The notes beneath the pieces are model-generated. The model had not been told where the DNA came from, searched no databases, and was given only the letters and a program-made list of their open reading frames with translations. This document shows positions 8,382-35,326 of a stretch of 64,000 nt of DNA, piece by piece (within the stretch, counting starts at the first letter, position 1; each line of letters opens with the position of its first letter). The position numbers were made by a program, and so were the translations under genes. The stretch lies in NCBI RefSeq assembly GCF_000482245.1, contig NZ_AWNH01000115.1, positions 186,001 to 250,000 on the forward strand, in the 5' to 3' direction. Source of the DNA: Leptolyngbya sp. Heron Island J (GTDB lineage Bacteria > Cyanobacteriota > Cyanobacteriia > Phormidesmidales > Phormidesmidaceae).

Positions 8382-9773
8382 ATGTTTGCTTCCTGGCTAA
8401 AATCACTTGAACCTCGTTATGGCCTTGATCTGCGCTCTTTGGCGCTGTTGCGTGTGGGATTGGCAGGGGTGATGCTGGTCGATTTGGGATGGCGTCTAGG
8501 GACTTTGACGCTCAACTATAGCGATCAGGGGGGGCTGCCCCGGAGTGCTTTGGGAGAACTATGGTTGCCAGGCTATTGGTCAATTCATGCCTGGAGTGGG
8601 GCCGTTGGCTGGCAGGTGGTATGTTTTGCGATCGCAGCCTTGAGCGCTTTCCTAATGCTGATCGGTTACCGCACCCGCTGGGCCACGCTGATCAGCTGGC
8701 TAATGCTGATCTCGTTACACAACCGTAACCCCCTGGTCATAGGAGCCGCCGATGACGTCCTGCGGGCCATGGTTTTCTGGGGGATATTTTTACCCTTAGG
8801 CAGCTGCTACTCAGTGGATCAGGCATTAAATATATCCCCACAGCCCCAGCCAAAACGTATCCTCACCGGGGCCACCCTCGGATTAATGGCCCAGCAATGC
8901 TACATCTACATAGCTTCCGCCCTATCGCCAACCCTCAGCAGTGGGGCAGTCATAGCCACGGTGCTGGCATGGGTGGGACCGTTGTTGCTATGGAGCCCAA
9001 TTAAGACAGACCTCTGTCGGCTGCTGGTAGTGGTGCTGTTTATGCTTTTTCATATCCTGGGGGCATTCACCTTAAATCTGGGGCTGCTACCGATTATCAG
9101 TTGTTTTACCTGGTTAGCGTTTATCCCCTCATCGGTGTGGGATGGTTGGGCGGAGCGAGCATTTACCCCCAAACAGCTAGGGCTAAAAATCTACTACGAT
9201 GCCGAGTGCGGTTTTTGCAAAAAAGTCGTGCATCTGCTCCGTACCTTTTTGGTATTACCGCAGCGAGTCCCCTTGCAAATTGCCCAGAGCGATCCGGTAA
9301 TTCAGACAGCCATGGAAACCCAGAACTCTTGGGTGATTGTCGATTGGCAAGGTAAACACCATTACAAGTGGCGTGGCATTGCCTATGTCGTTAGTCTCTC
9401 ACCGATATTTTATCCGTTAGCTAACGTATTACGTGTACCGCCCCTGATGGCCCTGGGCACCCGCCTTTACGAAACCATTGCCAACAATCGTCGCTTTGCC
9501 GGTAACTTTACCAAACCCTTCAAATATCAGTCCTTTACTGTCCGTTCTCCGCGTCTTCTCAATGGGGCGGCACTGCTAGCGCTGCTGCTGGTCACCCTTT
9601 TGAACCTGCGGAGCATCGCTGATTACAACGTCATTGCCCAAAGTCAGCAGCCAGCCATAGGTCTGTTACGTCAAATAGCCACCAGCACTACCGTGCAAAC
9701 GGTAGCACCTTTAGGACAAATTACCCGTCTGGATCAGTCCTGGCATATTTTCTCCCGGTCAGCGCCCGACTGA
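8382..9773 (+). CDS. HTTM domain fused to DCC-family thiol oxidoreductase domain
   Basis: A 463-residue membrane protein. Residues about 10-265 resemble the HTTM (vitamin-K-dependent carboxylase-like) domain: LDLRSLALLRVGLAGVMLVD, then YRTRWATLISWLMLISLHNR and DDVLRAMVFWGIFLPLG, with several transmembrane helices. Residues about 270-380 are a DUF393/DCC domain: IYYDAECGFCKKVVHLLRTF carries the CxxC-type motif that follows a beta strand, as in thioredoxin-like enzymes. A last hydrophobic helix lies near residue 400. The gene begins 40 bases after the type II NADH dehydrogenase and is probably in the same operon. Substrate is unknown; a membrane thiol/quinone redox role is plausible. Confidence 0.85.
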   Translation: MFASWLKSLEPRYGLDLRSLALLRVGLAGVMLVDLGWRLGTLTLNYSDQGGLPRSALGELWLPGYWSIHAWSGAVGWQVVCFAIAALSAFLMLIGYRTRWATLISWLMLISLHNRNPLVIGAADDVLRAMVFWGIFLPLGSCYSVDQALNISPQPQPKRILTGATLGLMAQQCYIYIASALSPTLSSGAVIATVLAWVGPLLLWSPIKTDLCRLLVVVLFMLFHILGAFTLNLGLLPIISCFTWLAFIPSSVWDGWAERAFTPKQLGLKIYYDAECGFCKKVVHLLRTFLVLPQRVPLQIAQSDPVIQTAMETQNSWVIVDWQGKHHYKWRGIAYVVSLSPIFYPLANVLRVPPLMALGTRLYETIANNRRFAGNFTKPFKYQSFTVRSPRLLNGAALLALLLVTLLNLRSIADYNVIAQSQQPAIGLLRQIATSTTVQTVAPLGQITRLDQSWHIFSRSAPD

Positions 9774-18999: not shown

Positions 19000-20442
19000 T
19001 TATGCCTGTAGCAAACTGGGATAGTAATGTTGCAACTCAGCTACAGCTTCCTCACGCATTCTCTGGCGCAATTCCAGCGGCATAATCACCTCCCCCATCG
19101 GTCGCCAGTCTCGCAGCCGCATCACACTATTGATATCCCCCAAGCGTATCCAGGCTCGATAGTAAGCATCCTGCGGATTGCGCTGGGCCAAAATCTCTAA
19201 TGCAGTGGCTTGCTCATTGACATCATCAATTTCCTGTTTAATTAACTTTGGCAATGCATCATAATCAACAGTCTCAAAGGTTTTATGCCGTTTAGTTTGG
19301 GCCACATACCGGCGAGCAAACTCAGGAGGAAACCGCATAATTAACAAACGCCGAGGTAGATAAAAATTAAACCCCCAAGCCTGATCTAAAGCAGCACTCA
19401 CATCCTCGGAAGTTGGCAGTTGTCCTCTGCGTCGTAGCTGCCGTAACGCTTCAGGCACTTGCGGATCACCCCAGGCAAATACCGTTAGCCGCGATGACAT
19501 AATTCGATCTAAACGATAGTTATGCCAGCCAAATATACCCGATGGATCATTGCCGTAGGCACTCAGGTATTTGGCTCGTCGAGAATAGTGTAAACACACT
19601 GGATAAACCGTAATAGTTGTTGTCACATCATCTGTACTATGCCAATAGTCAAACTGAATTACACCGCCGCCGCTGCGCCATAGCTGTTCGATTTGTTCTT
19701 GCAGCGTATCGACTTGTTCTTGCATTTCTTCCGACAAAATGTAATCCAGATGGATAAAGATTTGCCGATCTGGCTCTGGTGAAGCAATTGGTTGTTGATG
19801 GGTCAGCTGCTCCCATAGGGATTGCACAATTACATTTAGATTAGGTTGCACAAAGGCAATTGACTCTAGCGATCGCAACACCTCCCACGTCTGCGCCACC
19901 GACAAATTACCCAATGGCATCGGGGCATACCGTTCACTCAACGGCCAGTTTTGGGGCTCTACCTTACGAAATCGTCCCTTGCCCTCCCCAGCCAGCCAGC
20001 CCAGTTCTACCAAATGGGATAGATCATCTCGAATCGAGCGATGCACGGTGGCAAATGGACAGGTGGCCAAAGCCGTGTCTATGGCTGCTTTTGGCAGATT
20101 GCTCAGACTCATGATTTTGTGCTGCCAATCTATTAACGAAAAGGCAGGATTACTGTCCATTAACCAGGTTGATAGGGAACGCTGGCAACAACAATCAAGG
20201 TCGCAATGTGCCGTTAGCTCTGTCACCTTCGCTGTTTCACTACGGCCATGGCTGGATGCAAATAGAAGATTGCGTAAATCACCATAGCGAAATGGCTGCG
20301 GTAGCTGCTGTGCCCAAGCATCAGGTCCATAAAGCTGATGCAGCAATACCCACAGACGTACTGCCCGTAACAGTCGATCTGCTAATCGACCCTTGGCTAA
20401 GCTATGTAACAGTTCAGGTGTAGGCAGGTGGTTAAAGACCAT
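19000..20442 (-). CDS. CRISPR-associated WYL-domain regulator, TIGR03985 family
   Basis: About 480 residues from the preferred ATG at 20442, which has TAAGG five to nine bases upstream; an in-frame TTG at 20547 would add 35 residues without a binding site. The N-terminal part (LPTPELLHSLAKGRLADRLL, later DLSHLVELGWLAGEGKGRFR) looks like a winged-helix DNA-binding region. The middle part (GGGVIQFDYWHSTDDVTTTI, then YPVCLHYSRRAKYLSAYG) fits a WYL ligand-binding domain. The family occurs in cyanobacterial CRISPR loci, and WYL proteins there can repress cas or crRNA genes. It is divergent from the csx3 gene and has a palindrome 26 bases upstream. It is probably a local regulator of this island. 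Confidence 0.85.
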   Translation of the reverse strand: MVFNHLPTPELLHSLAKGRLADRLLRAVRLWVLLHQLYGPDAWAQQLPQPFRYGDLRNLLFASSHGRSETAKVTELTAHCDLDCCCQRSLSTWLMDSNPAFSLIDWQHKIMSLSNLPKAAIDTALATCPFATVHRSIRDDLSHLVELGWLAGEGKGRFRKVEPQNWPLSERYAPMPLGNLSVAQTWEVLRSLESIAFVQPNLNVIVQSLWEQLTHQQPIASPEPDRQIFIHLDYILSEEMQEQVDTLQEQIEQLWRSGGGVIQFDYWHSTDDVTTTITVYPVCLHYSRRAKYLSAYGNDPSGIFGWHNYRLDRIMSSRLTVFAWGDPQVPEALRQLRRRGQLPTSEDVSAALDQAWGFNFYLPRRLLIMRFPPEFARRYVAQTKRHKTFETVDYDALPKLIKQEIDDVNEQATALEILAQRNPQDAYYRAWIRLGDINSVMRLRDWRPMGEVIMPLELRQRMREEAVAELQHYYPSLLQA

Positions 20443-20467
20443 TGAAACCTTAACGAAAGCTTGTTTT

Positions 20468-20481
20468 GAAGACCCCTCTTC
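20468..20481. promoter_or_regulatory. Palindrome GAAGA-CCCC-TCTTC upstream of the WYL regulator
   Basis: A 5-base arm inverted repeat around CCCC, partly extended by flanking T and A runs (TTTTGAAGACCCCTCTTCTAAA). The identical 14-base core recurs at 32345-32358, upstream of the membrane CARF gene. It lies 26 bases before the regulator start and between divergent genes, which is a plausible operator position. Confidence 0.4.
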
Positions 20482-20620
20482 TAAAGTGTATGCATAATTG
20501 GCAAGAGGAAACCATATACCGGGATTAGTGGTGAAAAGATTCCACAATGCATCTGCTACATCTCAATGACATTAAAGTGTTGTGTTTATATATCTAATGT
20601 TTGCTTTTGGAGAGTGATCT

Positions 20621-21550
20621 GTGGCCGATGCTTCGATTCAACTGACGCTGAGCCATCATCAAACGACTCAAGGATTGGCGTATCAGTTGGTAACAATTGA
20701 GTTGGTGAGTCGCGATCGCATTATTGAACCGCAAGAGTTAGCAACATTGCGTTTACCGGCGGGTCTAGATCCACGCTTGGGTGTGGTGCTCTCTGGACGG
20801 GCTCCGGTCTGGCTCTATGCGTATCTGGTGCATGAATGTCATCCGACGGTGTGGGTTGCTTGTTTTGACCCACGCTTGGGGGCGGTTGTGACGACAACTC
20901 ATTCTAAACTTGTCAGTGTTGGGCAGGTGCTCCCGCTTGAGGATTTAAATTTGGGAGTACCGTCTATTCAACCTGATAAGCTGGGGCCTGCTCTATTGGT
21001 GGTGGGGCCGCCGGACAGTGGCAAGAGTGTTTTGTCTCACCAGTTGTTTGTAACTTTGGTTAAAGATTATCCGGATGTGTATTTACAACGCGCTCAATGG
21101 GATGGTGAGGGTAATTGGACATTAGATCTGCCGGAAAATGCATCCGAGCGAGAGGCATTTAAGTTGGCTAACAAAGGCACTCTGACAGAGCGATTTTTTC
21201 CGTATCAGGGGCAGGTGATTCGTAACCTGCGGCAACAAAAGTCGTTAGTGATTGTCGATGCTGGGGGAATGGTGCAACCGGAAAAGCAATCGATTCTGGA
21301 TGCTTGTACTCATTATTTGATTATTAGCTCAAAGCCTGAAGAGATTGAGCCCTGGCATGAGTTTTGTGGAAGTCAGGGGGGGGTACAGCCGATTGCAGTG
21401 ATTCACAGCACGTTAGAGACCATGATCGAAGTGTTGCAGCGTGAGCCGTTTTTGGAAGTGCGTTGTGGACCATGGGTACAGGGGGAGACCGATGGAGTGC
21501 CTGAGGTGTTAGAAGGGCAGGTGCGATCTCTAATAACAAGCGTGACGTAA
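20621..21550 (+). CDS. csx3: Csx3 ring nuclease fused to a P-loop (AAA-like) domain
   Basis: A 309-residue protein. Residues 1-110 are Csx3: LRLPAGLDPRLGVVLSGRAP (about 43-62), WLYAYLVHECHPTVWVACFD (64-83) and DPRLGAVVTTTHS. Csx3 (Crn3) degrades cyclic tetra-adenylate and so switches type III signalling off. From residue 122 there is an ATPase-like domain with P-loop GPPDSGKS (129-136) and SLVIVDAGGMVQP as a likely Walker B strand. This Csx3-AAA fusion is known mainly from cyanobacteria; the second domain has no clear role. The GTG start at 20621 has GGAGAG seven bases upstream. It is less AT-rich than the cas genes that follow and may have its own history. Confidence 0.92.
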   Translation: MADASIQLTLSHHQTTQGLAYQLVTIELVSRDRIIEPQELATLRLPAGLDPRLGVVLSGRAPVWLYAYLVHECHPTVWVACFDPRLGAVVTTTHSKLVSVGQVLPLEDLNLGVPSIQPDKLGPALLVVGPPDSGKSVLSHQLFVTLVKDYPDVYLQRAQWDGEGNWTLDLPENASEREAFKLANKGTLTERFFPYQGQVIRNLRQQKSLVIVDAGGMVQPEKQSILDACTHYLIISSKPEEIEPWHEFCGSQGGVQPIAVIHSTLETMIEVLQREPFLEVRCGPWVQGETDGVPEVLEGQVRSLITSVT

Positions 21551-21624: not shown

Positions 21625-22857
21625 ATGCCTACACTCAATGATTTTAGAAGGCGACATATCATTCTTCTAATAGGAGAAAACCCTCTTCCCAACTATGTCT
21701 CTGCAAAGCTGTTGCTACTCCCCGGTGGTACAGCACATCTCATGTGCTCAACAGCAACGCATGAAACTGCCAAGCGCTTAGGTAAAATGCTGGAATCTGA
21801 AGGATTTCAATATCAGCGCATTCAGATTTTGGATGAGGAATCTGATGGATTTAAGATTTCTAGTGAGCTTGGAAAGCATCTTGAAACTATTGGTGATCTA
21901 TCCATAGGTCTCAACTACATAGGGGGTACCAAAGTAATGGCTATCCATGCGTACCAAACGTTACTTCAAAGCAAACCTGCAGCAGTCTTCAGCTATCTAA
22001 ACCCTAGGCGTTTAGAACTTTGTATCGAGATTCAAGAAAACCGCCATGTAATCTCTTTGCCTGCATTAGATGTTGAATCGATTACGCTAGAGAAAATTCT
22101 GAAGCTGCATAATTTAAAGATACTTGATAAGCAGATAGAGCCTCATAATGCAGCAATTGCCACTGAATTTACGCAATTCTACACTGATCAAGAACTCATC
22201 AAAAAGTGGAGAAAATGGTGTGACAATACTTTGAAACAAGGAGACTGGAAAAAAGAAAAATTTCTTCAGAAAAGAGGAACACTATACATTGCTGATCTAC
22301 CCACCTCAATTCGCGATGTTCTGAATACTCATTTAGGAAGTAATAATGAGCAGATTGACTTAGAAAATGCTAAAACTCAATGTGGCTTCTCATCTCTTAA
22401 ACTACTTGCAAAATGGTTGGATGGGTTATGGCTTGAGGATTATGTTTTATCTCATGTCCAAAAAACATCATCTCAATATGGTCTACAAGAAATTGGTAGT
22501 TCCCTGAAACCTCAGGATCCTAATAAAAGAAATAAGAGCCCCAAAGAGGAACGCTTTGAGCTTGATGTTTGCTTTTTACGTGGGTATCAGCTTTTTGGAA
22601 TTGCTTGTACGACAGATTACTCACGTTCTCTCTGTAAACATAAGCTGATTGAAGCTTGTCTTAGGGCAAGACAATTGGGTGGGGATGAAGCTCGAATTGC
22701 TCTAGTCTGTGGATACCGAGATGCTGATGATTTGCGAGAAGAAGTCAGTCTGATGGGGGATGATCGGAAAATTGAAATCTTCTGTAGTTATGATTTGGAG
22801 CCAGAAGATTTTTCAGAAAAATTAGCAGCGTGGATTGAACGCAACATTGAGAATTAA
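21625..22857 (+). CDS. CARF-nuclease effector, Card1/Can2 (DUF1887) family
   Basis: A 410-residue two-domain effector. The N-terminal CARF domain shows HIILLIGENPLPNYVSAKLL (11-30) and the ligand-binding signature GLNYIGGTKVMAIHAYQTLL (95-114). The C-terminal restriction-like domain carries ELDVCFLRGYQLFGIACTT (312-330) and RARQLGGDEARIALVCGYRD (348-367); E312, D314 and K338 or K340 fit an ExD...K nuclease core. Family members bind cyclic tetra-adenylate made by Cas10 and then cut DNA and/or RNA without sequence specificity. It is separated by only one base from cas10 and is therefore the first gene of the effector operon, or the second after csx3. Confidence 0.92.
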   Translation: MPTLNDFRRRHIILLIGENPLPNYVSAKLLLLPGGTAHLMCSTATHETAKRLGKMLESEGFQYQRIQILDEESDGFKISSELGKHLETIGDLSIGLNYIGGTKVMAIHAYQTLLQSKPAAVFSYLNPRRLELCIEIQENRHVISLPALDVESITLEKILKLHNLKILDKQIEPHNAAIATEFTQFYTDQELIKKWRKWCDNTLKQGDWKKEKFLQKRGTLYIADLPTSIRDVLNTHLGSNNEQIDLENAKTQCGFSSLKLLAKWLDGLWLEDYVLSHVQKTSSQYGLQEIGSSLKPQDPNKRNKSPKEERFELDVCFLRGYQLFGIACTTDYSRSLCKHKLIEACLRARQLGGDEARIALVCGYRDADDLREEVSLMGDDRKIEIFCSYDLEPEDFSEKLAAWIERNIEN

Positions 22858-22858
22858 T

Positions 22859-24553
22859 ATGAGAGAAGTTACCTTGACTTTTATCGACACAACGGGTATT
22901 CAGCCTTATATTTTCAACAGTAATCGTCTGCGCGAAAATATAGGAGCTTCCTTTCTAGTTGAAGAATTTAGCACCACTTGGGTGGAAGCAGAGCTTAAAT
23001 CCCTGGGAGGCAAAATCCCTGATCCAGAGGTAGAGGTCAAAACGATTGAATCTGGTGCTAATGTAGAAGTCATTTATTCCGCAGGTGGGAACAGTGCCAT
23101 TCTGTTCAAAGAACGGGAGCAGGCAATTGCATTTGTTAAGAGACTCAGTTTTAAGCTTTTGCAAAAGGCTCCCGGTATCAATATAATCGTGGTACATAAA
23201 ACCTTTGATTGGGATCAAAAAACACCCACGCTCAAAGATATTTTAGATAACCTGAGAAAGACTGAGGTAGAAGCCAAGAAGAATGAGCGTCGTCCCTCAG
23301 TTCCCCAATTGGGATTAGGTGTTACTGCTGATTGTATTTCCACGCGTTTACCCGCAGTGGCGATGAGTGATTCAGACGTTGGTCAGCGTGATAGCTATAG
23401 GGTTTCTCGGGAAGTTAAGTGTAAAATCAACGCGAATAACAAGGCTAATAAAAAACTCCAGGCAGTATTTAAGCAACTTAAAAATCCCAATCAAGTTAGT
23501 TTTGACTTTCCACTAAGGCTAGACGATGTGGGTCGCACCCATAACGAATCAAGCTATGTTGCTATTGTTCATGCCGATGGTAACTCAATGGGGGAACGGT
23601 TTAAACAATGTGGTCAAGGTAAGAATAACCGTAAATTTATTACGGACATTCGTGCGTTATCCCAAAGCATCCAAGCAGCAAACATAAAAGCTCTCCAATC
23701 AGTGGTGGAGTGCTTACTGGCTTCAATTGTTCAGGGAAAATTATGGCTTGCTGATGGCGGTGAGATTCAACTGCAAAATGTCAAAGAAGGCTCAGAACAA
23801 ATTTTTCTGCCATTTCGTCCGATTGTTTTTGGTGGCGATGATACGACATTTATCTGCGATGGTCGATTAGGCATTATTTTGGCTAAAGTCTACCTTGAAA
23901 CGTTCGAGCAAGAGATGTTAGCTCAGGGTGAAAATCTTACAGCCTGCGCTGGGATCAGTATTGCTAAAGCGCACTATCCTTTTGCTCGTTCTTATGAAAT
24001 GAGTGAACGACTGTGTAAATCTGCTAAAAAGCTCAATCAGAACCAACAGGACAACACTCCATCCGGATCAGCCCTTGATTGGCATATTGCCTCTACCGGT
24101 TTATTAGGAACTTTAGATGAAATTCGCGATCGCGAATACACTGTTCCGTTAGACAGATCCAAGCCAGGCAGGCTTTATATGCGCCCAGTTTGGGTTACAG
24201 AAGATAAGCATCCGTGGCGCAACTGGCAGCAGTTTGAGCAGGTGGTTCAAGCATTTAGCTCTAAGGCTAATAGCGCAGATAGTGATTCCAGTGAACAGTG
24301 GAATCGCAATAAGGTCATTGCACTGCGAGAAGAATTGCGAGCAGGACCAGAGGCCACTGAAAATTTTCTAAAACTGTATCGTCTTGGTCAATTGCCAGGG
24401 CTTGATTCTAAATCATCTCAACTCGTTCAGGGCGGTTGGGATAGCGATGAGGGAAACCCTATTTGTGGCTACTTTGATGCAATCGAAGCCATAGATTTTT
24501 ACGTACAGCTTAAAACAGAGAACGCTTCGCCAGGGGAGGATATGCATGAGTAA
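22859..24553 (+). CDS. cas10: Cas10, HD-less, with GGDD cyclase motif (type III-D)
   Basis: The large-subunit signature protein of type III systems, 564 residues. It starts directly in a first palm-like region (TLTFIDTTGIQPYIFNSNRL) with no N-terminal HD nuclease domain. VAIVHADGNSMGERFKQCG marks the palm fold, and FGGDDTTF (GGDD at 325-328) is the intact second palm motif that makes cyclic oligoadenylates from ATP. The start is the ATG at 22859, one base after the stop of the CARF nuclease; an in-frame TTG at 22835 would overlap it. The 3' end overlaps the next gene by eight bases. DNA cleavage is not expected without HD, so the output should be signalling plus target RNA cutting by the Cas7 subunits. 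Confidence 0.93.
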   Translation: MREVTLTFIDTTGIQPYIFNSNRLRENIGASFLVEEFSTTWVEAELKSLGGKIPDPEVEVKTIESGANVEVIYSAGGNSAILFKEREQAIAFVKRLSFKLLQKAPGINIIVVHKTFDWDQKTPTLKDILDNLRKTEVEAKKNERRPSVPQLGLGVTADCISTRLPAVAMSDSDVGQRDSYRVSREVKCKINANNKANKKLQAVFKQLKNPNQVSFDFPLRLDDVGRTHNESSYVAIVHADGNSMGERFKQCGQGKNNRKFITDIRALSQSIQAANIKALQSVVECLLASIVQGKLWLADGGEIQLQNVKEGSEQIFLPFRPIVFGGDDTTFICDGRLGIILAKVYLETFEQEMLAQGENLTACAGISIAKAHYPFARSYEMSERLCKSAKKLNQNQQDNTPSGSALDWHIASTGLLGTLDEIRDREYTVPLDRSKPGRLYMRPVWVTEDKHPWRNWQQFEQVVQAFSSKANSADSDSSEQWNRNKVIALREELRAGPEATENFLKLYRLGQLPGLDSKSSQLVQGGWDSDEGNPICGYFDAIEAIDFYVQLKTENASPGEDMHE

Positions 24554-25217
24554 CTATAGCTTTTATCTTAAATTACTCAGTGACAGCACCTTTGGTCGAG
24601 GAGATGGGATTGCAGGTATTATCGATCAAGAAGTCGAGCATGATAGCGATGGTTTTCCTTTTTTACGGGGACGCACGCTAAAAGGATTGCTCAGAGAAGA
24701 ATGCGATAATTTAGTCGATGTTTTACCCCAAAGTCAAAAGGACTTTTGGCAAGACTCATTGAAGTTGCTGTTTGGTGTCCCTGGTAGTGATCTAAAAGTC
24801 ATAGGAAAAATGCAGGTGGGTGACGCCCAGTTACCAGTTGACTTACGTCGAGCTGTAGCGATTCAAATTCAGAAGAAGGAATTGACTACCTCAGAGGTTC
24901 TGAACTCTCTGACAACGCTGCGTCGGCAGACAGCCATTGACATTGAAACGGGTGTAGCTTCTGATAATAGCCTTCGTACCAACCGTGTGATTTTACGAGA
25001 ATTGGTGTTTGCAGCGTCCCTCGATTTAGATGTCGATCAAGATTGTCTGGAGGATAGTCTTTCACTACTATCAGCAGGTGCTCAAGCACTACGCCGAGTT
25101 GGCAGCGGACGTAACCGAGGGAAAGGTCATGTAAAATGCTGGATTCAGACTGAGGCTGAGACTCTGAACTATAGCGATCTCTTCTTTGACAGAATTCGGG
25201 AGATAGGTGCAGCATGA
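24546..25217 (+). CDS. cas7: Single-domain Cas7 RAMP subunit (Csm3-like)
   Basis: A 223-residue RAMP protein. The N-terminal strand SFYLKLLSDSTFGRGDGIAG is followed by FPFLRGRTLKGLLREECDNL (about 38-57), which matches the RGRTLKGLLR loop of Cas7-like subunits. The glycine-rich loop LRRVGSGRNRGKGHVKCWI lies near the C-terminus. Asp residues between 18 and 35 (GDGIAGIIDQEVEHDSDG) could supply target-RNA cleavage. It overlaps cas10 by eight bases and csx10 by four (ATGA), so translation is coupled. In the III-Dv complex of Synechocystis the equivalent Cas7 is fused to Cas5 and Cas11; here it is a free-standing gene. Confidence 0.88.
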   Translation: MSNYSFYLKLLSDSTFGRGDGIAGIIDQEVEHDSDGFPFLRGRTLKGLLREECDNLVDVLPQSQKDFWQDSLKLLFGVPGSDLKVIGKMQVGDAQLPVDLRRAVAIQIQKKELTTSEVLNSLTTLRRQTAIDIETGVASDNSLRTNRVILRELVFAASLDLDVDQDCLEDSLSLLSAGAQALRRVGSGRNRGKGHVKCWIQTEAETLNYSDLFFDRIREIGAA

Positions 25218-26818
25218 AAGTGATTAAATTTCAGATTACCAATGAGGAACCCGTTTTAGTTACATCTTTTCAAGGCGACCCTAATAGCGATGTTTCTTAT
25301 GACTACATTCCAGGTAGCACTATTCGAGGCTTCCTGATTAGTCGGTATTTGAGAGCCCATCCTGAGCTAACGGAAGACATTTTAGTTGATAAGACGGTGC
25401 GATCTCTCTTTTTTGAAACAGAGACACGGTTTTTGAATGCTTACCTAAGCACAGGAGATAAGAAACATCTACGCAGTTTACCTGCGCCGCTCACTTGGCG
25501 GCATGAAAAGGGATATGAGGATTACATTTTAGATAAAAGCTATTCCTCAATAAACGAGGATGAAGATACTGAAAATGAAAGATCACAGGATACAAAGAAG
25601 CTAGTCAGAATCGGTCAGAAATTTTGTCAGATAGTCAGACCGTCTAGCGAACACCCTAAAGTTATTCTTTATCGTCCCCAGCGTCGGATTAATATTCACA
25701 ACCGGCGTAGTCGAAAACGGGGGCGAGCGACTAAGGAAGAGGGGCAAGTTTATCGATATGAATCTTTGGAGGCGGGTCAAAGTTTTGAGGCTATTATTTT
25801 ATGCAATCAAGGGGCTGATGCCACAGTACTTGAGCAACTATTGAAGCGATCTCAAACAGCTCGCATTGGCGGATCTAGAACAGCCGGGTATGGCAAAGTA
25901 ACAATCAGCGACACAATATGCACAGATGCGGACAACTGGACTGAAGTGGGTAAACCTTTTCAATCCCGCATCAGAAAAAATGTTGCCATCACATTGCTCA
26001 GCGATGCAATTATCTGTAACGACTATGGTCAATATGTGGTTGAAGCCCCGATTCAGGCAATTGCTAATGCAATGGGAGTTGAGCAGATCAGCCAAACGCC
26101 TAAGATCTACATGGGCAGTACCTTTGTTGGTGGCTTTAATCGTAAATGGGGCTTGCCGCTGCCTCAGGTTCAAGCCGTTGCAGCTGGTAGCGTATTTATT
26201 TTTCCAGATTTAGACATTACTCCAGAACAAGCTCGTCAGCTAGAGTGGCAGGGGATTGGCGAGCGACGCAATGAAGGATTTGGCCGGGTGGCAGTAAATT
26301 GGCTGCCTGAAATGTCTGAATTTAGGGTAGAAAAACCAACCCAAACGTTAAGGGAAAAGCCCTTAGAAAAACTATCGTCAACTAGTGAAACATTAGCTCA
26401 AAAGATGGCCAGTCGATTACTCCGCCAAAAACTGGATTTGGCGTTGGAAAAAAAGTTAACAGAATGGCCCCTGAGTGGAGAGATAACTAATAGCCAACTC
26501 TCTCGACTAATGTTGGTGGCTAATCAAGCCTTAGTGGAAAAACAGCCAGATCTGATCAATCAGTTTTTTGCAAATCTCCGTTCTAATGCCAAGACTAAAT
26601 TTGAATCTCCTAAATTAGGTTCTCAACCACTTCAAAAACGTTGTCAGACTTGGCTTGAAAAGCCTAAAGATACCCTCTGGATTGATCAAAGGCTGACCAT
26701 CACAATCGCAGGTACAACAGCAGACGTGACTCAGGCCTTGGGGCAAGAATATGCGTTGCGACTAATTATTGCGATCGCACGCAAAGGCATCAAGCAAGCA
26801 GCCAAACAGGAGGGATAG
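25214..26818 (+). CDS. csx10: Csx10: Cas5-like RAMP with helical Cas11-like C-terminal domain (type III-D)
   Basis: A 534-residue signature protein of subtype III-D. The start shows the Csx10 pattern EPVLVTSFQGDPNSDVSYDY, IPGSTIRGFLISRYL and LFFETETRFLNAYLS. Two glycine-rich loops follow: GGSRTAGYGKVTI (about 216) and GERRNEGFGRVAVNW (about 347). From about residue 370 the sequence becomes strongly helical and charged (ETLAQKMASRLLRQKLDLAL, LRLIIAIARKGIKQAAK), as expected for a fused small subunit (Cas11). Its start overlaps the stop of the single Cas7 in ATGA. Cas5-like subunits cap the crRNA 5' handle. The 4-base gap to the next gene confirms operon structure. The Cas11 assignment rests on position and helicity only. 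Confidence 0.9.
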   Translation: MKVIKFQITNEEPVLVTSFQGDPNSDVSYDYIPGSTIRGFLISRYLRAHPELTEDILVDKTVRSLFFETETRFLNAYLSTGDKKHLRSLPAPLTWRHEKGYEDYILDKSYSSINEDEDTENERSQDTKKLVRIGQKFCQIVRPSSEHPKVILYRPQRRINIHNRRSRKRGRATKEEGQVYRYESLEAGQSFEAIILCNQGADATVLEQLLKRSQTARIGGSRTAGYGKVTISDTICTDADNWTEVGKPFQSRIRKNVAITLLSDAIICNDYGQYVVEAPIQAIANAMGVEQISQTPKIYMGSTFVGGFNRKWGLPLPQVQAVAAGSVFIFPDLDITPEQARQLEWQGIGERRNEGFGRVAVNWLPEMSEFRVEKPTQTLREKPLEKLSSTSETLAQKMASRLLRQKLDLALEKKLTEWPLSGEITNSQLSRLMLVANQALVEKQPDLINQFFANLRSNAKTKFESPKLGSQPLQKRCQTWLEKPKDTLWIDQRLTITIAGTTADVTQALGQEYALRLIIAIARKGIKQAAKQEG

Positions 26819-26822
26819 CCCT

Positions 26823-28298
26823 ATGGTGATTCGAGACGACCATCGAAAGATTATTAAGCGTCTGATTATTCGTGGCAACTTACATTTGATCACCCCTACC
26901 TGTTTAGGCAGTGGCGATCAAGATAGCCTAACCGATATGGCGCTACTGCGGGATAGCATTACCGAGCGGGCTTTATTACCAGGCACATCTCTAGGCGGTG
27001 CCCTACGCAACTACCTTCAAGAACGTCTCTCTGGTTATGGTCAAGAACAGAAAGTGAAGCTGTTGACTCAACTCTTCGGTGGTAAACGAGGTGACGAAGA
27101 TGGAGAACAAAGTGCGTTAGTAATCCATGACTCTATCAGCCACGAACCTCCAAAAATAGAATTTCGTGATGGCGTCAAAATTGATAGCCGTACAGGTACC
27201 GCTGTTGATGGAGCAAAATACGACCTAGAGTTGGTTGCTGCTGGGACCATTTTCCCATTGATGATAGAGCTACTCGTCGAAGACGATGCCAATTTAGCTG
27301 AGCTTAAACAAGGGCTGGCGATCTCTTTACAAGGATTAGAAAACAGCGAAATTTCCCTTGGCATCAAAAAAACACGTGGCTTTGGCCAATGCAAAGTTAC
27401 CACTTGGCAAGTCGATGAATTTAACCTAACCAATCTTGATCATTTAAAGGATTGGCTCAACTACAACAATGAAGTCTCCATTATTCCAGATGTAAATCAA
27501 CCGCCCGATATTGCTACACAATTAGACGTAAGCAATTTAACTGACGAACGCAGTCAGTTTACCCTTAGCGCCACATTTGAACTACAAGGAGGGGGCCTAA
27601 TTCGGTCTGGACAAGATGCGATGGGTATTGTCCCTGACGTAGTGCATTTGACTGCCAAACAAGATAATGGGGAAGTGAAACCCATCATCTCTGGCACTAG
27701 CTGGACAGGGGTGTTGCGACATCGAGCTGAGCGGATCTTAAATACTTTGGAGAAAGGTCAGAACGGGACAGAACTCTTAGAGTGTATTTTTGGACAGGTA
27801 CCCGAAAAGCGTATTGATACAGCTCAAGAGAAACAAGCCAGAGCCAGCCGTTTGGTTGTCCATGAAAGTCCGATTCATGATTCAGCGTCTATGGTACAAA
27901 ATCGTATCGCCATTGATCGGTTTACAGGAGGTGCATTCGATGGGGCCTTGTTTGATGAACAGCCTGTATTTGGAGGTGAAGTCACGTTGAACTTGGAGTT
28001 ACGTAATCCTTATGATCGAGACAAGGATTTACAAAAGCAAGAGATAGGCTTACTCCTATTGTTACTAAAAGATCTTTGGACTGGCGATTTACCTATAGGT
28101 GGAACTAGCAGTATTGGTCGAGGAAGGCTACGAGGAAAGGATGCAACTATTACTCAGAAAGGTAGTGAGCTAAAGCAGTGGAAAATCATACAAGAATCTG
28201 GTCAACTTCAAGTCAGTAACCTACAAGATCCATCTCAAGAACAAGAAACAACCAGGCAAGAATTAGAAGACTTTGTCAGTGCCCTGAACGCTGCCTAG
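26823..28298 (+). CDS. Double Cas7 RAMP protein (Cas7-2x)
   Basis: About 491 residues from the ATG at 26823; the frame is open further upstream inside csx10, but AGGAG at about 26809 and the 4-base gap support this start. Two Cas7 modules are visible. The first has NLHLITPTCLGSGDQDSLTD, LLPGTSLGGALRNYL and KKTRGFGQCKVTTW. The second has SATFELQGGGLIRSGQDAMG, ISGTSWTGVLRHRAERIL and GGTSSIGRGRLRGKD. Each half carries VIHDSIS or VVHESPIHDS, followed by the RTGTAVDGAKYDLE or RFTGGAFDGALFDE segment, showing an internal duplication. Fused double Cas7 subunits are typical of the III-Dv/III-D2 group and provide backbone positions with RNA-cleaving Asp residues. Confidence 0.9.
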   Translation: MVIRDDHRKIIKRLIIRGNLHLITPTCLGSGDQDSLTDMALLRDSITERALLPGTSLGGALRNYLQERLSGYGQEQKVKLLTQLFGGKRGDEDGEQSALVIHDSISHEPPKIEFRDGVKIDSRTGTAVDGAKYDLELVAAGTIFPLMIELLVEDDANLAELKQGLAISLQGLENSEISLGIKKTRGFGQCKVTTWQVDEFNLTNLDHLKDWLNYNNEVSIIPDVNQPPDIATQLDVSNLTDERSQFTLSATFELQGGGLIRSGQDAMGIVPDVVHLTAKQDNGEVKPIISGTSWTGVLRHRAERILNTLEKGQNGTELLECIFGQVPEKRIDTAQEKQARASRLVVHESPIHDSASMVQNRIAIDRFTGGAFDGALFDEQPVFGGEVTLNLELRNPYDRDKDLQKQEIGLLLLLLKDLWTGDLPIGGTSSIGRGRLRGKDATITQKGSELKQWKIIQESGQLQVSNLQDPSQEQETTRQELEDFVSALNAA

Positions 28299-28348
28299 AG
28301 AAAACACGATCAGTGAGTGTACTTATGAAATAAGTGAGAGGCATATTA

Positions 28349-28918
28349 ATGAATCAACCAGACTGTAAAATAGCTTCAATCAAAGATCTGGAGAATCTAC
28401 CACAATGGCTCGTAGCTAAGGCTAAACACTACAAGCTCAAGTATCTGCTAGCCCATGCAGAAGATGGCGTAATCTGGGGAAGATTTGATGAGGAAAGTCT
28501 GATTACTGCCGATCAGGTCTTTACAGATCTATCTCAAAAATTACCCACATTAAGATTGTCTACGCTTCAGCGCTGTCGAGCGTTTAGTCAAGCAGGCGAA
28601 TTACTTTTATGGAAATCTCGTAGTGACTGGAAATATTGTTTTACCGGCAATCTAGATGGTGATTATATTTCGGAAAAACAGATGCTTTGGGGTACTCAAA
28701 AAGTTGAAGAAGTTGAAGAAAAAGACGGTTTCACCTTGGTGAAAGACGGCTCGGAAGGATTACGTCATGCAGTGCCTTGTGTAGACATTCCTTTTTCAAA
28801 CGATCGTAAAAAGCTTAAACGGCCCCTAAGGCTAGAAGTTCATCACTACATTGACTATGACGAAGATGGTTTAGCTCGAATTAATCGTAGCCGTCTTGTT
28901 GATTTGACAACTGTTTAA
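28349..28918 (+). CDS. csx19: Csx19, TIGR03984 family CRISPR-associated protein
   Basis: A 189-residue protein from the ATG at 28349, which has GAGAGG seven bases upstream; a GTG at 28334 is also in frame. Family features: WLVAKAKHYKLKYLLAHAED (about 18-37), VIWGRFDEESLITADQVF (about 39), QRCRAFSQAGELLLWKSRSD (about 73-92) and the late RLEVHHYIDYDEDGLARINR SRL block. Csx19 is a non-RAMP subunit found in type III-D loci of the cyanobacterial kind and is part of the III-Dv complex. It has no known catalytic activity. It sits between the two large Cas7 genes, as in related loci. Confidence 0.9.
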   Translation: MNQPDCKIASIKDLENLPQWLVAKAKHYKLKYLLAHAEDGVIWGRFDEESLITADQVFTDLSQKLPTLRLSTLQRCRAFSQAGELLLWKSRSDWKYCFTGNLDGDYISEKQMLWGTQKVEEVEEKDGFTLVKDGSEGLRHAVPCVDIPFSNDRKKLKRPLRLEVHHYIDYDEDGLARINRSRLVDLTTV

Positions 28919-28931
28919 CGAGAATTAATAA

Positions 28932-31244
28932 ATGTATCCAAAACATATCTCTAAAGTCTCTGAAACTGCTCAAATACAAAGAGAAAAAGTTGGTGAAATT
29001 TCTATTTCACGAAAAGCTGTTGCAGCATATAACTTTGTGGAGCTTCCAGACAAAGTCGTTAGTGCTGAAGCCGATGTCATCTCAAAGCCTCAGAATCAAT
29101 ATCATTCTGACCTTCACTCAGGCTGTATCGACTGTACCTTGACTACAGCTTCGCCTTTATACATTCGCACTGGTTTAAATTTAGAAGAGTTTCAGCAAGA
29201 GAAAGAGGCTAAAGATTTACCTGGCTTCTATTACACCGATCCTGACACTCAAAAACCTGTACTACCAGGCAGCAGTCTAAGAGGCATAATGAGATCGCTG
29301 ATAGAAATCGTTAGTTTTTCCAAATTTTCCAAGGTTTCCGAGCAGCAGCGCTTCTTTTTTCGAGCTGTAGCAGCATTCAATGACGATCCTACGAGTAGTC
29401 TCTACAAAAATAAATTAAGTTCTAAGAATGTAAAAGCTGGATATCTAAGACATGAGAATGGGCAATGGTTTATTCAACCAGCTAGACTCATTGGAGATCA
29501 GACATTTGTTCGTATTGAGGATAAAAATATCAACTTACCTGGCTTCATCTCAATGAATGATCCTGCATACAAGCCACAATATTTTTCTAACATTAGTTTT
29601 TCTGTAGACGAAGGCAAAAAAAAGGCTACCGAGTTGAGTGCGAATCCTAATGAATTAGATTATGTAGGGACTTTGGTTACCAGCGGTAACATGAAAGAAA
29701 CAGGCGATCAGTCCTCTGGTAAGACTGATCGCAAGTATCACTACTTAATCCAGCAACCAGATTCAAAACCTCAACGCTTGAAAATTAGTGATATTGCCAT
29801 TAGAGATTACAGAAATTCACTCACTACTTTTCAGAAGTATGGCAGTAATCAAAAGGATGAAAATACAGATTCTCCGTTTAGTGAAAAAGATGGCTTTCTA
29901 AAGAAAGGACGTTGTGTTTTTTACTGTGAACCATTGGAGGGAGAGGATGTAACCTTATTTGGGCAAAGCCCTAATTTTAGAATTGCTTACTCCTTTAAAG
30001 AGTCTGGAGAATCTGCTTCTGCCGCTGATTTCGTTCCGGAAAAGCTTAAAAGTTCAGATGTCGTTGAAGTAGATATTGCTGAATCAATCTTTGGTTATGT
30101 TCGAAACAAGAAAACAAGCTGTTCTGATGAACAACAGGCACGTGCAGGCAAAGTTTTCTTCTCAGATGGCATTTGTCAAGAAGAGAATATAGAAGATATT
30201 TTCATGGTAAATAAAGCTGGAGAAGTTCCAAGAATCCTTGCCAGCCCAAAACCAACTACTTTTCAGCATTATCTTGTACAAACTAGTTCTGAAAAGAAAA
30301 AACTAAAACACTATGCCAGTATGCCTGAAAAAGATACTGTAATTCGGGGGCACAAACTATATTGGCACAAAGGTGAAGCTCCTGATATATGGCATCCAGA
30401 TTCAAAGAATGCGTCAGAAACCCAAATTACGCGCATTCGACCTATAAAACCCAACAAGGTCTTCACATTCAAGATCGACTTTGAAAATCTAAGTTCTGTA
30501 GAGTTGGGAGCATTGTTATGGATTTTAGATGTTGCTCAGCAAGACCAATATCGTCTATCCCTTGGCATGGGAAAACCCTTGGGGATGGGAGCAGTTAAAC
30601 TTACTCATGAAGTATATCTTTGCGATCGCGCCAAAATCGAAAAATCTCAATCTCGATATACATCATTATTTGAAGATAACGGTGGATGGTTCTCCGGCTA
30701 TAGTAACGTTCTTGGTCAATCAGATTTAGATGAACATACTCAAGCCTTTGAGAAACATGTGCTAAGAGCGCTTGAACAATCTGATAAATGGCAAAAGTTG
30801 AGTCAACTACGTCGCATCAAAATGCTTCTAACCATGTTGGAGTGGAAAGAAACTTTATCTGAGGATGAAGAGAATCAAAAACGGTATATGGAAATTGAGC
30901 GTGATAGTAAAGAGAGTCATATTATCGTTAATTCTCCAAAACCAAATGATGCAAAAATCAACGAGTATAGTGAACGCCCGATACTGCCAAATCCACTCCA
31001 AGTGGCTGGAGAAGTAACAAGACCTAAAACTTTTACAGAGGGAATGAAACTGGAAGCTAGAGTGTTAGAAAAAAAGAAAAAGGGAAGTAAGGTTAAATAC
31101 GAAATTTTCAATGAACATTATAATGAGGGAGAGAAAAAGTCTTTTAGCAAAATTCCAGATGAAGGGATGGTAATAGTTGAAATCAGGTCCTTGAAAGAAG
31201 ATGGCAGCATTAATCACGTTAAGTTTGTCAGGACTATTGAATAG
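28932..31244 (+). CDS. Large Cas7-insertion RAMP protein, TIGR03986 family
   Basis: A 770-residue RAMP protein. The Cas7 motifs are spread out: HSGCIDCTLTTASPLYIRTG (about 57-76), LPGSSLRGIMRSLIEIVSFS (about 113-132), a segment with AESIFGYVRNKKTS and ARAGKVFFSDG (about 380-415), and LGMGKPLGMGAVKLTHEVYL (about 545-564), the glycine-rich loop. Long insertions between them explain the size, as in the Cas7-insertion subunit of III-Dv. The last 70 residues (LEARVLEKKKKGSKVKYEIF) look like a small beta-barrel, possibly RNA-binding. Base composition is clearly AT-rich compared with chromosomal neighbours. It is the last gene of the effector operon. Confidence 0.9.
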   Translation: MYPKHISKVSETAQIQREKVGEISISRKAVAAYNFVELPDKVVSAEADVISKPQNQYHSDLHSGCIDCTLTTASPLYIRTGLNLEEFQQEKEAKDLPGFYYTDPDTQKPVLPGSSLRGIMRSLIEIVSFSKFSKVSEQQRFFFRAVAAFNDDPTSSLYKNKLSSKNVKAGYLRHENGQWFIQPARLIGDQTFVRIEDKNINLPGFISMNDPAYKPQYFSNISFSVDEGKKKATELSANPNELDYVGTLVTSGNMKETGDQSSGKTDRKYHYLIQQPDSKPQRLKISDIAIRDYRNSLTTFQKYGSNQKDENTDSPFSEKDGFLKKGRCVFYCEPLEGEDVTLFGQSPNFRIAYSFKESGESASAADFVPEKLKSSDVVEVDIAESIFGYVRNKKTSCSDEQQARAGKVFFSDGICQEENIEDIFMVNKAGEVPRILASPKPTTFQHYLVQTSSEKKKLKHYASMPEKDTVIRGHKLYWHKGEAPDIWHPDSKNASETQITRIRPIKPNKVFTFKIDFENLSSVELGALLWILDVAQQDQYRLSLGMGKPLGMGAVKLTHEVYLCDRAKIEKSQSRYTSLFEDNGGWFSGYSNVLGQSDLDEHTQAFEKHVLRALEQSDKWQKLSQLRRIKMLLTMLEWKETLSEDEENQKRYMEIERDSKESHIIVNSPKPNDAKINEYSERPILPNPLQVAGEVTRPKTFTEGMKLEARVLEKKKKGSKVKYEIFNEHYNEGEKKSFSKIPDEGMVIVEIRSLKEDGSINHVKFVRTIE

Positions 31245-34097: not shown

Positions 34098-35326
34098 CTT
34101 TCATTTCCAAAACCCCGCAAGGGGACGGAAACAATGGTAACTCAACAGTTTGATTAGTTCCTCTTTCATAACTTTCATTTCCAAAACCCCGCAAGGGGAC
34201 GGAAACGCAAGTTATTGAACACATCAACCCATAGTAAAACAGCACTTTCATTTCCAAAACCCCGCAAGGGGACGGAAACACAGTAATAACAGCAATACCC
34301 ACTAGACCTTTTGTCAACCTTTCATTTCAAAAACCCCGCAAGGGGACGGAAACAAAGAATGCATCACTCAAGTATAGGTCTAGGTCTAGGTCCTCTTTCA
34401 TTTCCAAAACCCCGCAAGGGGACGGAAACCTGCAAGCGTATTGGTCCGGTCCTCTAAGGCTGCATTGACCTTTCATTTCCAAAACCCCGCAAGGGGACGG
34501 AAACCATCAACAACCATGGTTGCCCCGCGCAGGTAGGAATTATTCTTTCATTTCCAAAACCCCGCAAGGGGACGGAAACGCGATCGCGAAGCCGACAAGA
34601 AAAGTGGCAACGAACTTAAGTCTTTCATTTCCAAAACCCCGCAAGGAGACGGAAACATAATCGTCGGCAGGTACATCAAAAAACTGTGCCAAGGTTCTTT
34701 CATTTCCAAAACCCCGCAAGGGGACGGAAACTATAGATTCCTGTGATGGGGATCTCAGAAGGAAGTGCCCACTTTCATTTCCAAAACCCCGCAAGGGGAC
34801 GGAAACTCGGAACACCATCAACTAGGCCAACTGTGAGTGTCTCGCCTTTCATTTTCAAAACCCCGCAAGGGGACGGAAACCAACATATTGCTGTTGTATA
34901 GCGGCTTCAAGGCATCTTTCATTTCCAAAATCTCGCTAGGGAACGGAAACGAGAATTAAATTGCCATAGGCAGCATTAGTTGCATTAGTCTTTCATTTTC
35001 AAAACCCCGCAAGGGGACGGAAACTCAAAACTCAACCCCCAAGGGGTTAGGAAAAGGGCTGCTACTTTCATTTCCAAAACCCCGCAAGGGGACGGAAATG
35101 CTAGAAGTTCCAGTTTGACCAGGGTCTTGAGAAAGTACTTCTTTCATTTCCAAAACCCCACAAGGGGACGGAAACCCAGAGCTATTACCCACAATGGGAA
35201 ACTCTCCCGAAACGTCTTTCATTTTAAAAACCCCGCAAGGGGATGGAACTGGTTGGGAAGCCCATGGTCGAAGGGTTTAGAGATAGTCAGTCTTTTATTT
35301 CTAAAACCTCGCAAGGGGGCAAAATG
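34098..35326 (+). CRISPR. CRISPR array, 17 repeats and 16 spacers
   Basis: The 35-base repeat begins CTTTCATTTCCAAAA, continues CCCCGCAAGGGG and ends ACGGAAAC. The centre forms a CCCC/GGGG stem with a GCAA (GNRA) loop, and the 3' end gives an ACGGAAAC-type 5' handle for crRNAs. Repeats start at 34098, 34172, 34245, 34319, 34395, 34470, 34545, 34622, 34697, 34772, 34846, 34916, 34990, 35065, 35141, 35216 and 35292. Spacers are 35-42 bases, mostly 39-41. Single changes occur in the repeats at 34319, 34622, 34846, 34990, 35065 and 35141; those at 34916, 35216 and 35292 are clearly degenerate. Transcription is rightward from the cas2 side. Confidence 0.98.

What the first reader, a model, noticed from the sequence alone, without database searches (positions are those of the whole stretch)
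20621..21550. Csx3 fused to a P-loop ATPase-like domain
The Csx3 part (residues 1-110) is complete, and a second domain with GPPDSGKS and a Walker-B-like strand follows. The purpose of an ATPase on a ring nuclease is not established; it might sense nucleotide state or gate ring cleavage.
Basis: partly seen in the sequence, partly recalled or inferred. Interest (0 to 1): 0.5.

Follow-up and report, generated by a model that had tools for sequence, protein, structure and literature searches.

The report
Ring nuclease fused to SIMIBI NTPase
A cyanobacterial CRISPR gene joins an enzyme that clears the cA4 alarm molecule to a second domain usually labelled "AAA"; here that domain looks like a different kind of nucleotide-binding switch, and in related loci it mostly travels with an intact copy of the clearing enzyme, which makes its unknown role testable.

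Summary
The 309-aa ORF 20621-21550(+) holds a complete Csx3/Crn3 domain with all five known functional residues (H71, H74, D83, R85, H94), then a P-loop domain (GPPDSGKS, DGEG, VIVDAGG), inside a type III-D CRISPR operon. [quoted passage not shown]

Two points go further. First, the domain is not AAA+ by motif; its predicted fold is that of SIMIBI NTPases (all 50 best structural rows: MinD/ParA, NifH-like, CobB, CTP synthase, DTBS and kin). Second, among relatives whose fused Csx3 lost its catalytic histidine, most have a separate intact Csx3 gene directly upstream (13 of 15 in a census, 24 of 28 in a larger set). Where the fused Csx3 is complete or nearly so this is rare (0 of 22; 1 of 45). 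The window's genome has one locus of each kind, and degenerate copies are under purifying selection.

Most likely the SIMIBI domain works with an intact ring nuclease, as an NTP-dependent assembly switch or partner enzyme. P-loop-first relatives without a complete Csx3 site keep a sensor-effector reading alive. No activity of the domain has been shown.

The parts
20621..21550 (+). csx3-SIMIBI fusion gene (Csx3', 'Csx3-AAA'), 309 aa, GTG start; GGAG 9-12 bases upstream reads as a ribosome-binding site (inference)
20636..20932 (+). Csx3/Crn3 ring nuclease domain (about residues 6-104)
   Evidence: Pfam 6.8e-31, NCBIfam 9.2e-30, structure match AfCsx3-cA4 6yud Z 16.4 over 103 residues
20831..20842 (+). 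H71 and H74 (= H57, H60 of AfCsx3, the H60 face)
20867..20875 (+). D83 and R85 (= D69, R71 of AfCsx3, the cA4-binding face)
20900..20902 (+). H94 (= H80 of AfCsx3)
20978..21547 (+). SIMIBI-type P-loop NTPase domain (residues 120-309)
21005..21028 (+). Walker A GPPDSGKS (residues 129-136)
21101..21112 (+). DGEG motif (residues 161-164); D161, G162 and G164 invariant in the 77 sequences of alignment A3 (rows were picked by this motif)
21248..21268 (+). Walker B strand VIVDAGG (residues 210-216); DxGG in 77 of 77 of A3
19000..20547 (-). divergent CRISPR-associated WYL regulator (TIGR03985)
   Evidence: NCBIfam 1.8e-98
21625..22857 (+). CARF-PD(D/E)XK effector, Card1-like
   Evidence: PADLOC 4.4e-122 and 2e-121; Pfam CARF_Card1 0.00017, below its cut-off
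22835..24553 (+). Cas10 (type III-D), 572 aa, GGDD cyclase motif at residue 333, no HD dipeptide
24546..31244 (+). type III-D effector genes: Cas7-like, Csx10, Cas7-Cas7, Csx19, TIGR03986
31587..32300 (-). CARF-transmembrane protein
   Evidence: PADLOC 2.1e-107
34098..35098 (.). CRISPR array, 12 exact copies of a 23-base repeat core found

Best explanation
The gene encodes a cA4 ring nuclease (Crn3/Csx3) with a C-terminal SIMIBI-type P-loop NTPase domain. Inferred mechanism: Csx3 dimers stack head-to-tail on cA4 and cut it at a site shared between two dimers (eLife 2020, passages). SIMIBI domains usually work as nucleotide-dependent dimers (recalled). The SIMIBI domain therefore acts together with an intact Csx3, most likely as an NTP-dependent switch that favours or blocks stacking of Csx3 dimers and so times cA4 clearance. 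In sister loci the job is split: a separate gene supplies the intact Csx3, and the Csx3 fused to the SIMIBI domain has become a conserved non-catalytic docking partner. Shown here: domain identity, intact Csx3 residues, predicted SIMIBI fold, the co-occurrence pattern, purifying selection on degenerate copies. Inferred: NTP binding, dimerisation, heteromer formation, any effect on cA4 cleavage.
For: Csx3 residues complete. Model of the domain alone has pLDDT 93.3; its 50 best VIA rows are all proteins of the SIMIBI class (class recalled), best MinD 1g3q Z 14.7, rmsd 3.3 over 171 residues. Census of the 49 strong places: of 15 single fusions whose Csx3 lacks H60, 13 have an intact stand-alone Csx3 directly upstream; of 22 with a complete or near-complete site, 0 (Fisher 2.9e-8, ignoring kinship). 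Larger set: 24 of 28 lost, 0 of 39 complete, 1 of 6 near. Of 32 stand-alone copies beside fusions or split domains, 13 have H-H-D-R-H, 1 has H-Y-D-R-H and 18 have the H-D-K-H variant. Five loci carry a Csx3 gene and a separate SIMIBI gene side by side: L009, L085, L100, L101, L153. Degenerate Csx3 evolves at dN/dS 0.115-0.247 in 9 of 10 pairs (no value for the tenth), intact Csx3 at 0.072-0.169 in 8 pairs. Cat1 and Csx15 are precedents for stacked dimers holding cA4 (passages).
Against: P-loop-first relatives (Chloroflexota, Patescibacteria, Clostridia) and the two Bacteroidales fusions have no complete Csx3 site, and a genome search with TIGR02579 found only the fusion itself in 7 of those 9 genomes and nothing in 2, so partnership with an intact Csx3 is not universal. 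With kinship allowed for there are only 6 independent pairs and the sign test gives median p 0.25. Two lost cyanobacterial fusions of one genus (L029, L137) and one with a doubled, degenerate Csx3 (L018) lack a neighbour Csx3. 3 of 17 fusions with the H-D-K-H variant also have a second Csx3. Deletion of the Synechocystis homologue slr7080 did not affect plasmid defence (Shah 2019 as cited in PMC9676260, passage). No biochemistry of the domain was found.
Confidence: 0.45

Rival explanations
1. The SIMIBI domain is an enzyme in its own right, a phosphotransferase or synthetase that processes the ring-nuclease product (linear A2-P) or another nucleotide; Csx3 feeds or activates it.
For: eLife 2020 already calls it 'kinase/transferase' (legend). 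D161-G-x-G, D213-x-G-G and W245 are invariant in A3, perhaps more than a bare switch needs. DTBS, CobB and CTP synthase, phosphoryl-transfer SIMIBI enzymes (recalled), are among the 50 best rows.
Against: No kinase or synthetase family is matched over a cut-off by the window protein or nine of its ten tested relatives' P-loop parts seen; such matches (APS_kinase, 3 of 77) are weak. No acceptor-site motif was recognised.
Confidence: 0.25
2. It is a self-limiting cA4 effector: Csx3 senses cA4 by stacking, this activates the NTPase domain, and Csx3 cleavage is the timer.
For: P-loop-first and Bacteroidales versions keep the SIMIBI motifs without a complete Csx3 site. 3 of 8 P-loop-first loci have Cas10 or RAMP genes in the flanks held. 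Cat1, whose cA4-binding domain resembles Csx3 (Z 11.7), is a filament-activated effector (passages).
Against: In cyanobacteria an intact Csx3 is mostly kept beside the domain, which fits a clearance module at least as well. The window locus already has two CARF proteins.
Confidence: 0.2
3. It is an AAA+ ATPase that remodels cA4-bound effectors or Csx3 filaments, as the label in PADLOC and papers implies.
For: PADLOC and papers use 'AAA'. Weak Pfam matches to AAA_18 and AAA_16 occur in 35 and 30 of 77 members.
Against: Walker B is DxGG in 77 of 77, with no Asp-Glu. For the window protein AAA_16 scores 12.9 bits against a cut-off of 32.6. No AAA+ chain is among the 50 best structural rows, which alone would not exclude it.
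Confidence: 0.03

Closest known systems
Csx3' / Csx3-AAA (PADLOC PDLC01045; slr7080 of Synechocystis PCC 6803)
   Same: Same architecture and order, type III CRISPR context; profile match 4.9e-94.
   Different: This is a further member. The label AAA does not fit motif or predicted fold; SIMIBI fits better.
Crn3/Csx3 of Archaeoglobus fulgidus (AF_1864; 6yud, 3wzi)
   Same: About 36% identity, same fold (Z 16.4), the catalytic residues.
   Different: AfCsx3 stands alone; here a 190-residue NTPase domain follows.
SIMIBI NTPases (MinD, ParF/ParA, CobB, DTBS, CTP synthase)
   Same: Predicted fold Z 11.8-14.7 over 149-175 residues; Walker A; DxxG-type Walker B.
   Different: 9-17% identity; lacks the ParA/MinD signature lysine (0 of 77); own DGEG motif; no family match by sequence.
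PADLOC AAA-Csx3 (PDLC01059)
   Same: Same NTPase domain, also linked to Csx3-like domains.
   Different: Reversed order, two Csx3-like domains, neither with a complete site.
Cat1 (CARF-TIR) and Csx15
   Same: cA4 held between stacked dimers; Cat1's domain matches the Csx3 part.
   Different: Cat1 carries a TIR effector, Csx15 stands alone; neither has a SIMIBI domain.

Membership tests
Crn3/Csx3 ring nuclease | Curated profile over cut-off | tested here: met
   TIGR02579 102.8 bits (cut-off 55.4), PF09620 106.4 (cut-off 21)
Crn3/Csx3 ring nuclease | H57, H60, D69, R71, H80 of AfCsx3 conserved | tested here: met
   H71, H74, D83, R85, H94
Crn3/Csx3 ring nuclease | Csx3 fold | tested here: met
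   predicted model: 6yud Z 16.4, rmsd 1.9, 103 residues
Crn3/Csx3 ring nuclease | Mn-dependent cleavage of cA4 | not testable with these tools
   needs an assay
[quoted passage not shown]
   Cas10 with GGDD, Csx10, Csx19, CARF proteins, array
Csx3-AAA (PADLOC PDLC01045) | Full-length profile match, Csx3 before P-loop domain | tested here: met
   4.9e-94 over 8-305
SIMIBI-class NTPase | Fold of the class | tested here: met
   predicted models only: 50 of 50 best VIA rows for the domain alone, Z 11.8-14.7; class of each row recalled. Foldseek alone is weaker and mixed.
SIMIBI-class NTPase | Walker A plus DxxG-type Walker B | tested here: met
   DxGG in 77 of 77 of A3, 100 of 101 rows. Rows were picked by Walker A and DGEG, so only DxGG is an independent count.
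SIMIBI-class NTPase | NTP binding or hydrolysis | not testable with these tools
   needs an assay
MinD/ParA subfamily (deviant Walker A) | Signature lysine five residues before the Walker A lysine | tested here: not met
   0 of 77 have Lys there (P 67, F 7, S 1, A 1, T 1)
AAA+ ATPase | Walker B with acidic pair (hhhhDE) | tested here: not met
   DxGG in 77 of 77
AAA+ ATPase | Pfam AAA profile over cut-off (window protein) | tested here: not met
   best AAA_16 12.9 bits whole protein, 13.8 domain alone, cut-off 32.6
AAA+ ATPase | AAA+ fold | tested here: inconclusive
   none among the 50 best rows, which does not exclude it
TRAFAC GTPase | NKxD base-specificity motif | tested here: not met
   [NT]KxD anywhere in only 6 of 77

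The most novel reading that the evidence does not exclude
Csx3-SIMIBI is one half of a two-part cA4-clearing machine. In many cyanobacteria Csx3 has doubled into a catalytic stand-alone subunit and a conserved pseudo-ring-nuclease that tethers a SIMIBI NTPase into mixed Csx3 stacks. In one lineage the pseudo-copy keeps R46 and D69 and has lost H57, H60 and H80, a natural half-site like the H60A mutant that D69A protein complements in vitro. NTP turnover by the SIMIBI domain would then assemble or take apart cA4 stacks: an energy-driven off-switch for type III CRISPR signalling.
Probability: 0.35. Interest if true: 0.7.

Novelty: new member of a known kind. Interest (0 to 1): 0.45.

Why it matters
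Csx3' is described as common in cyanobacteria, yet its second domain has stayed 'unknown function' since 2020, and the AAA label may point experiments the wrong way. A SIMIBI assignment predicts nucleotide-dependent dimers, not hexameric rings, and names residues to mutate. The intact/degenerate Csx3 pairs, one of them in the same genome as the window, are natural experiments that suggest which partner the domain needs.

Tried and rejected
AAA+ reading: set aside on motif and Pfam cut-offs; no AAA+ chain is among the 50 best rows, which alone would not exclude it.

GTPase Der and kin lead the sequence-profile hits for the domain (7.5e-05 and 1.6e-05, from P-loop and DTGG fragments each weak on its own). 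I read this as shared P-loop motifs.

First idea, that loss of Csx3 catalysis means the domain works without a ring nuclease: dropped for most cyanobacteria once the upstream intact Csx3 genes were found. It stays open for P-loop-first and Bacteroidales versions.

First idea, that the divergent Csx3-like fusions lie outside CRISPR: wrong. By local iterated profiles, 16 of 18 H-D-K-H loci and 11 of 24 lost loci have Cas10 or RAMP genes in the flanks held, and 18 of 18 and 21 of 24 have at least one of the type III-linked genes looked for. Many flanks are cut by contig ends.

Selection caveats. One search used a DGEG[NSA]W seed and kept 80 of 151 relatives, so it cannot find domains that lost this motif; the rule therefore rests first on the census. 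In that census of 49 places I set aside, before the 13-of-15 and 0-of-22 counts, 5 tandem double-Csx3 fusions (L018, L025, L143, L150, L151), 3 fusions with the H-D-K-H site (L012, L031, L139; none has a separate Csx3), 2 split loci (L009, L153) and 2 decayed ones (L149, whose neighbour Csx3 is truncated; L154, a fragment). Of the tandems, one domain of L150 has H-H-D-K-H, one each of L025 and L143 has H60-D-K-H with Ser at H57; L018 and L151 have no such domain. Outside the census the motifs are not absolute: L091 has EVGG, L150 GGNINRGKT, L151 DGES, and L149 has lost Walker A and DxGG. In the larger set, lost rows without a neighbour Csx3 are L018, L029, L086 and L098; L102 (masked stretch), L009 and L039 had no site call. 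The set holds near-duplicates (L004/L041, L010/L054, L012/L108, L031/L109, L093/L096). P-loop-first rows were put in the lost class by hand; L084 was among the 8 though its Csx3 part was not seen in the ORF. Their C-terminal Csx3 lacks the full set in each of the rows aligned; the middle Csx3-like domain was judged by eye only, and that of L087 keeps HELHP, so 'dead' is not proven for it. (PDLC01040) missed even the fused domain in G093 and G123, so its zero there shows little. In clade B H57 sits one residue off, and the aligner places it variably (H, K or R).

Makarova 2020 (NAR gkaa635) and Shah 2019 are not held, so an earlier mention of the pairs or the fold there cannot be excluded. Listings searched: Csx3 with AAA+ring nuclease, fused+ATPase, kinase, SIMIBI, MinD, pseudoenzyme, cyanobacteria+fusion, the term Csx3-AAA, and Crn3+AAA. 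Passages were read in seven papers only (PMC7371418, PMC9676260, PMC12409355, PMC11127173, PMC12162218, PMC13148439, PMC7159879); none of those passages mentions intact/degenerate Csx3 pairs or a SIMIBI fold for this domain. The one paper holding both Csx3 and SIMIBI (PMC7159879) uses them in separate passages.

Full report
What is there. The ORF 20621-21550(+) encodes 309 aa. Residues 6-104 are Csx3/Crn3 by Pfam, NCBIfam and predicted structure. By the PDB alignment and the residues named in passages of PMC7371418, H57, H60, D69, R71 and H80 of A. fulgidus Csx3 are H71, H74, D83, R85 and H94 here. Residues 120-309 carry GPPDSGKS, DGEG and VIVDAGG. The gene follows a divergent WYL regulator and precedes a CARF-PD(D/E)XK protein, a GGDD Cas10 without an HD dipeptide, type III-D Cas7/Csx10/Csx19 genes, a CARF-transmembrane protein and an array.

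Already known. PADLOC holds the architecture as Csx3-AAA and the reverse as AAA-Csx3. The legend of Fig. [quoted passage not shown] PMC12409355 and PMC9676260 call the domain AAA, function unknown or uncharacterised (passages only).

The second domain. AlphaFold models of the window protein (31 sequences, pLDDT 86.8) and of a stand-alone relative (77 sequences, pLDDT 93.3, pTM 0.87) were compared with the PDB. For the domain alone all 50 best VIA-align rows are proteins that I know as SIMIBI class: MinD (Z 14.7, rmsd 3.3, 171 residues), ParF, Soj, ApbC, BchL and NifH, CobB, CTP synthase, DTBS, HypB and others. Foldseek alone is weaker and mixed (best E 1.5e-4; GPN GTPases lead, shikimate and dephospho-CoA kinases also appear; query TM-score at most 0.64 in the 50 rows shown). 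By sequence no P-loop family reaches its cut-off in the window protein or in the ten relatives; the scan of the 77 members gives only weak matches to mixed P-loop families (best E 7.8e-5). Walker B is DxGG in 77 of 77; the ParA/MinD signature lysine is absent in 77 of 77; [NT]KxD occurs in 6 of 77. So: SIMIBI-type by predicted fold, in no named subfamily, and not AAA+ by motif. Invariant in A3, in window numbering: G129, G134, K135, D161, G162, G164, D213, G215, G216, W245. A3 holds 77 of the 87 sequences at hand (86 kept after removing near-copies, plus the window), all picked by Walker A and DGEG.

Relatives. A profile search of 386 cyanobacterial genomes gave 49 strong places in 47 genomes (E at most 1.3e-19), all of which were read. 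A scan of named genomes gave 151 relatives, of which 80 were kept. Among 101 rows with a site call, 39 keep H-H-D-R-H; 6 differ at one or two of these positions but keep H60 and R71; 20 have an H60-D-K variant (three of them split genes, called by hand); 28 Csx3-first fusions lack H60; 8 are P-loop-first and were classed by hand (7 when L084 is left out). On the SIMIBI-domain tree, functional and lost states need at least 9 changes.

The rule. Among Csx3-first fusions, 24 of 28 that lack H60 have a separate Csx3 gene directly upstream on the same strand, against 0 of 39 complete, 1 of 6 near and 3 of 17 H-D-K-H fusions (Fisher 4e-14 for lost versus complete plus near, ignoring kinship). In the census of the 49 places, after the rows named in Tried and rejected are set aside, it is 13 of 15 lost single fusions against 0 of 22 complete or near ones (Fisher 2.9e-8, same caveat). 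Of the 32 stand-alone copies, 13 have H-H-D-R-H, 1 H-Y-D-R-H and 18 the H-D-K-H variant; the two further ones beside lost fusions in the census (L148, L152) have H-H-D-R-H. Five loci (L009, L085, L100, L101, L153) carry Csx3 and the SIMIBI domain as two adjacent genes. L070, placed with the lost fusions on the tree, keeps its site and has no second gene. With kinship allowed for there are only 6 independent pairs, and the sign test is not significant (median p 0.25).

Own genome. The window's genome has a second locus, G000:C72 (L115): an intact stand-alone Csx3 at 8417-8875, then a degenerate Csx3-SIMIBI at 8844-9770 (ORFs from stop to stop). So both arrangements coexist in one genome.

Is the degenerate Csx3 just decaying? 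Its dN/dS is 0.115-0.247 in 9 of 10 pairs (the tenth has no value; three have dS above 1.7 and are rough), against 0.072-0.169 for 8 intact pairs, which speaks for a kept function. In lineage B2 (L005, L006, L007, L011, L013, L015, L016, L017, L018) all 9 keep R46 and D69, have Lys at R71 and lack H57, H60 and H80, like an H60-null half-site; 8 of the 9 have a stand-alone Csx3 upstream. The eLife work showed that H60A and D69A proteins complement each other (passage).

Against a universal rule. The P-loop-first proteins of Chloroflexota, Patescibacteria and Clostridia and the two Bacteroidales fusions have no complete Csx3 site (the middle domain of L087 keeps HELHP and is uncertain). TIGR02579 finds only the fusion itself in 7 of those 9 genomes and nothing in 2; the tenth genome searched, Verrucomicrobia L082, has a complete fusion. 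Two lost cyanobacterial fusions of one genus (L029, L137) also have no neighbour Csx3. These could be sensors or effectors.

Conclusion. A Crn3 ring nuclease with a SIMIBI-type NTPase domain: a known architecture whose second domain seems mislabelled. The best-supported role is a partner of an intact ring nuclease. The step from co-occurrence to gating is inference, held at 0.45.

Noticed in passing
L115 8417-9770 (own genome, contig C72): Second csx3 locus: intact stand-alone Csx3 plus degenerate Csx3-SIMIBI, near an array and a WYL gene; no Cas10 or RAMP found in the 20 kb read. The CARF-TM gene at 281-1131 appears as two overlapping frames.
   Followed up: partly
L143, L150, L151, L018, L025: Tandem Csx3-Csx3-SIMIBI fusions in one polypeptide, a third arrangement of two Csx3 domains per SIMIBI domain.
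   Followed up: partly
L153 1999-3062: Stand-alone Csx3 with the canonical H-H-D-R-H site and a stand-alone SIMIBI gene side by side: the split form of the window's own type.
   Followed up: no
L149 1774-3061 and L154 2469-2873: Decaying loci: truncated Csx3 with altered Walker A and DxGG, and a C-terminal fragment alone.
   Followed up: no
L097 9653-10330: In Leptolyngbya sp. PCC 7375 a degenerate fusion stops early after DVGG, beside a stand-alone Csx3.
   Followed up: no
PDB 9mud (Cat1 residues 145-258): Cat1's cA4-binding domain matches the window's Csx3 domain (Z 11.7, rmsd 2.1, 101 residues); the main text of the Cat1 paper holds neither 'Csx3' nor 'Crn3'.
   Followed up: partly
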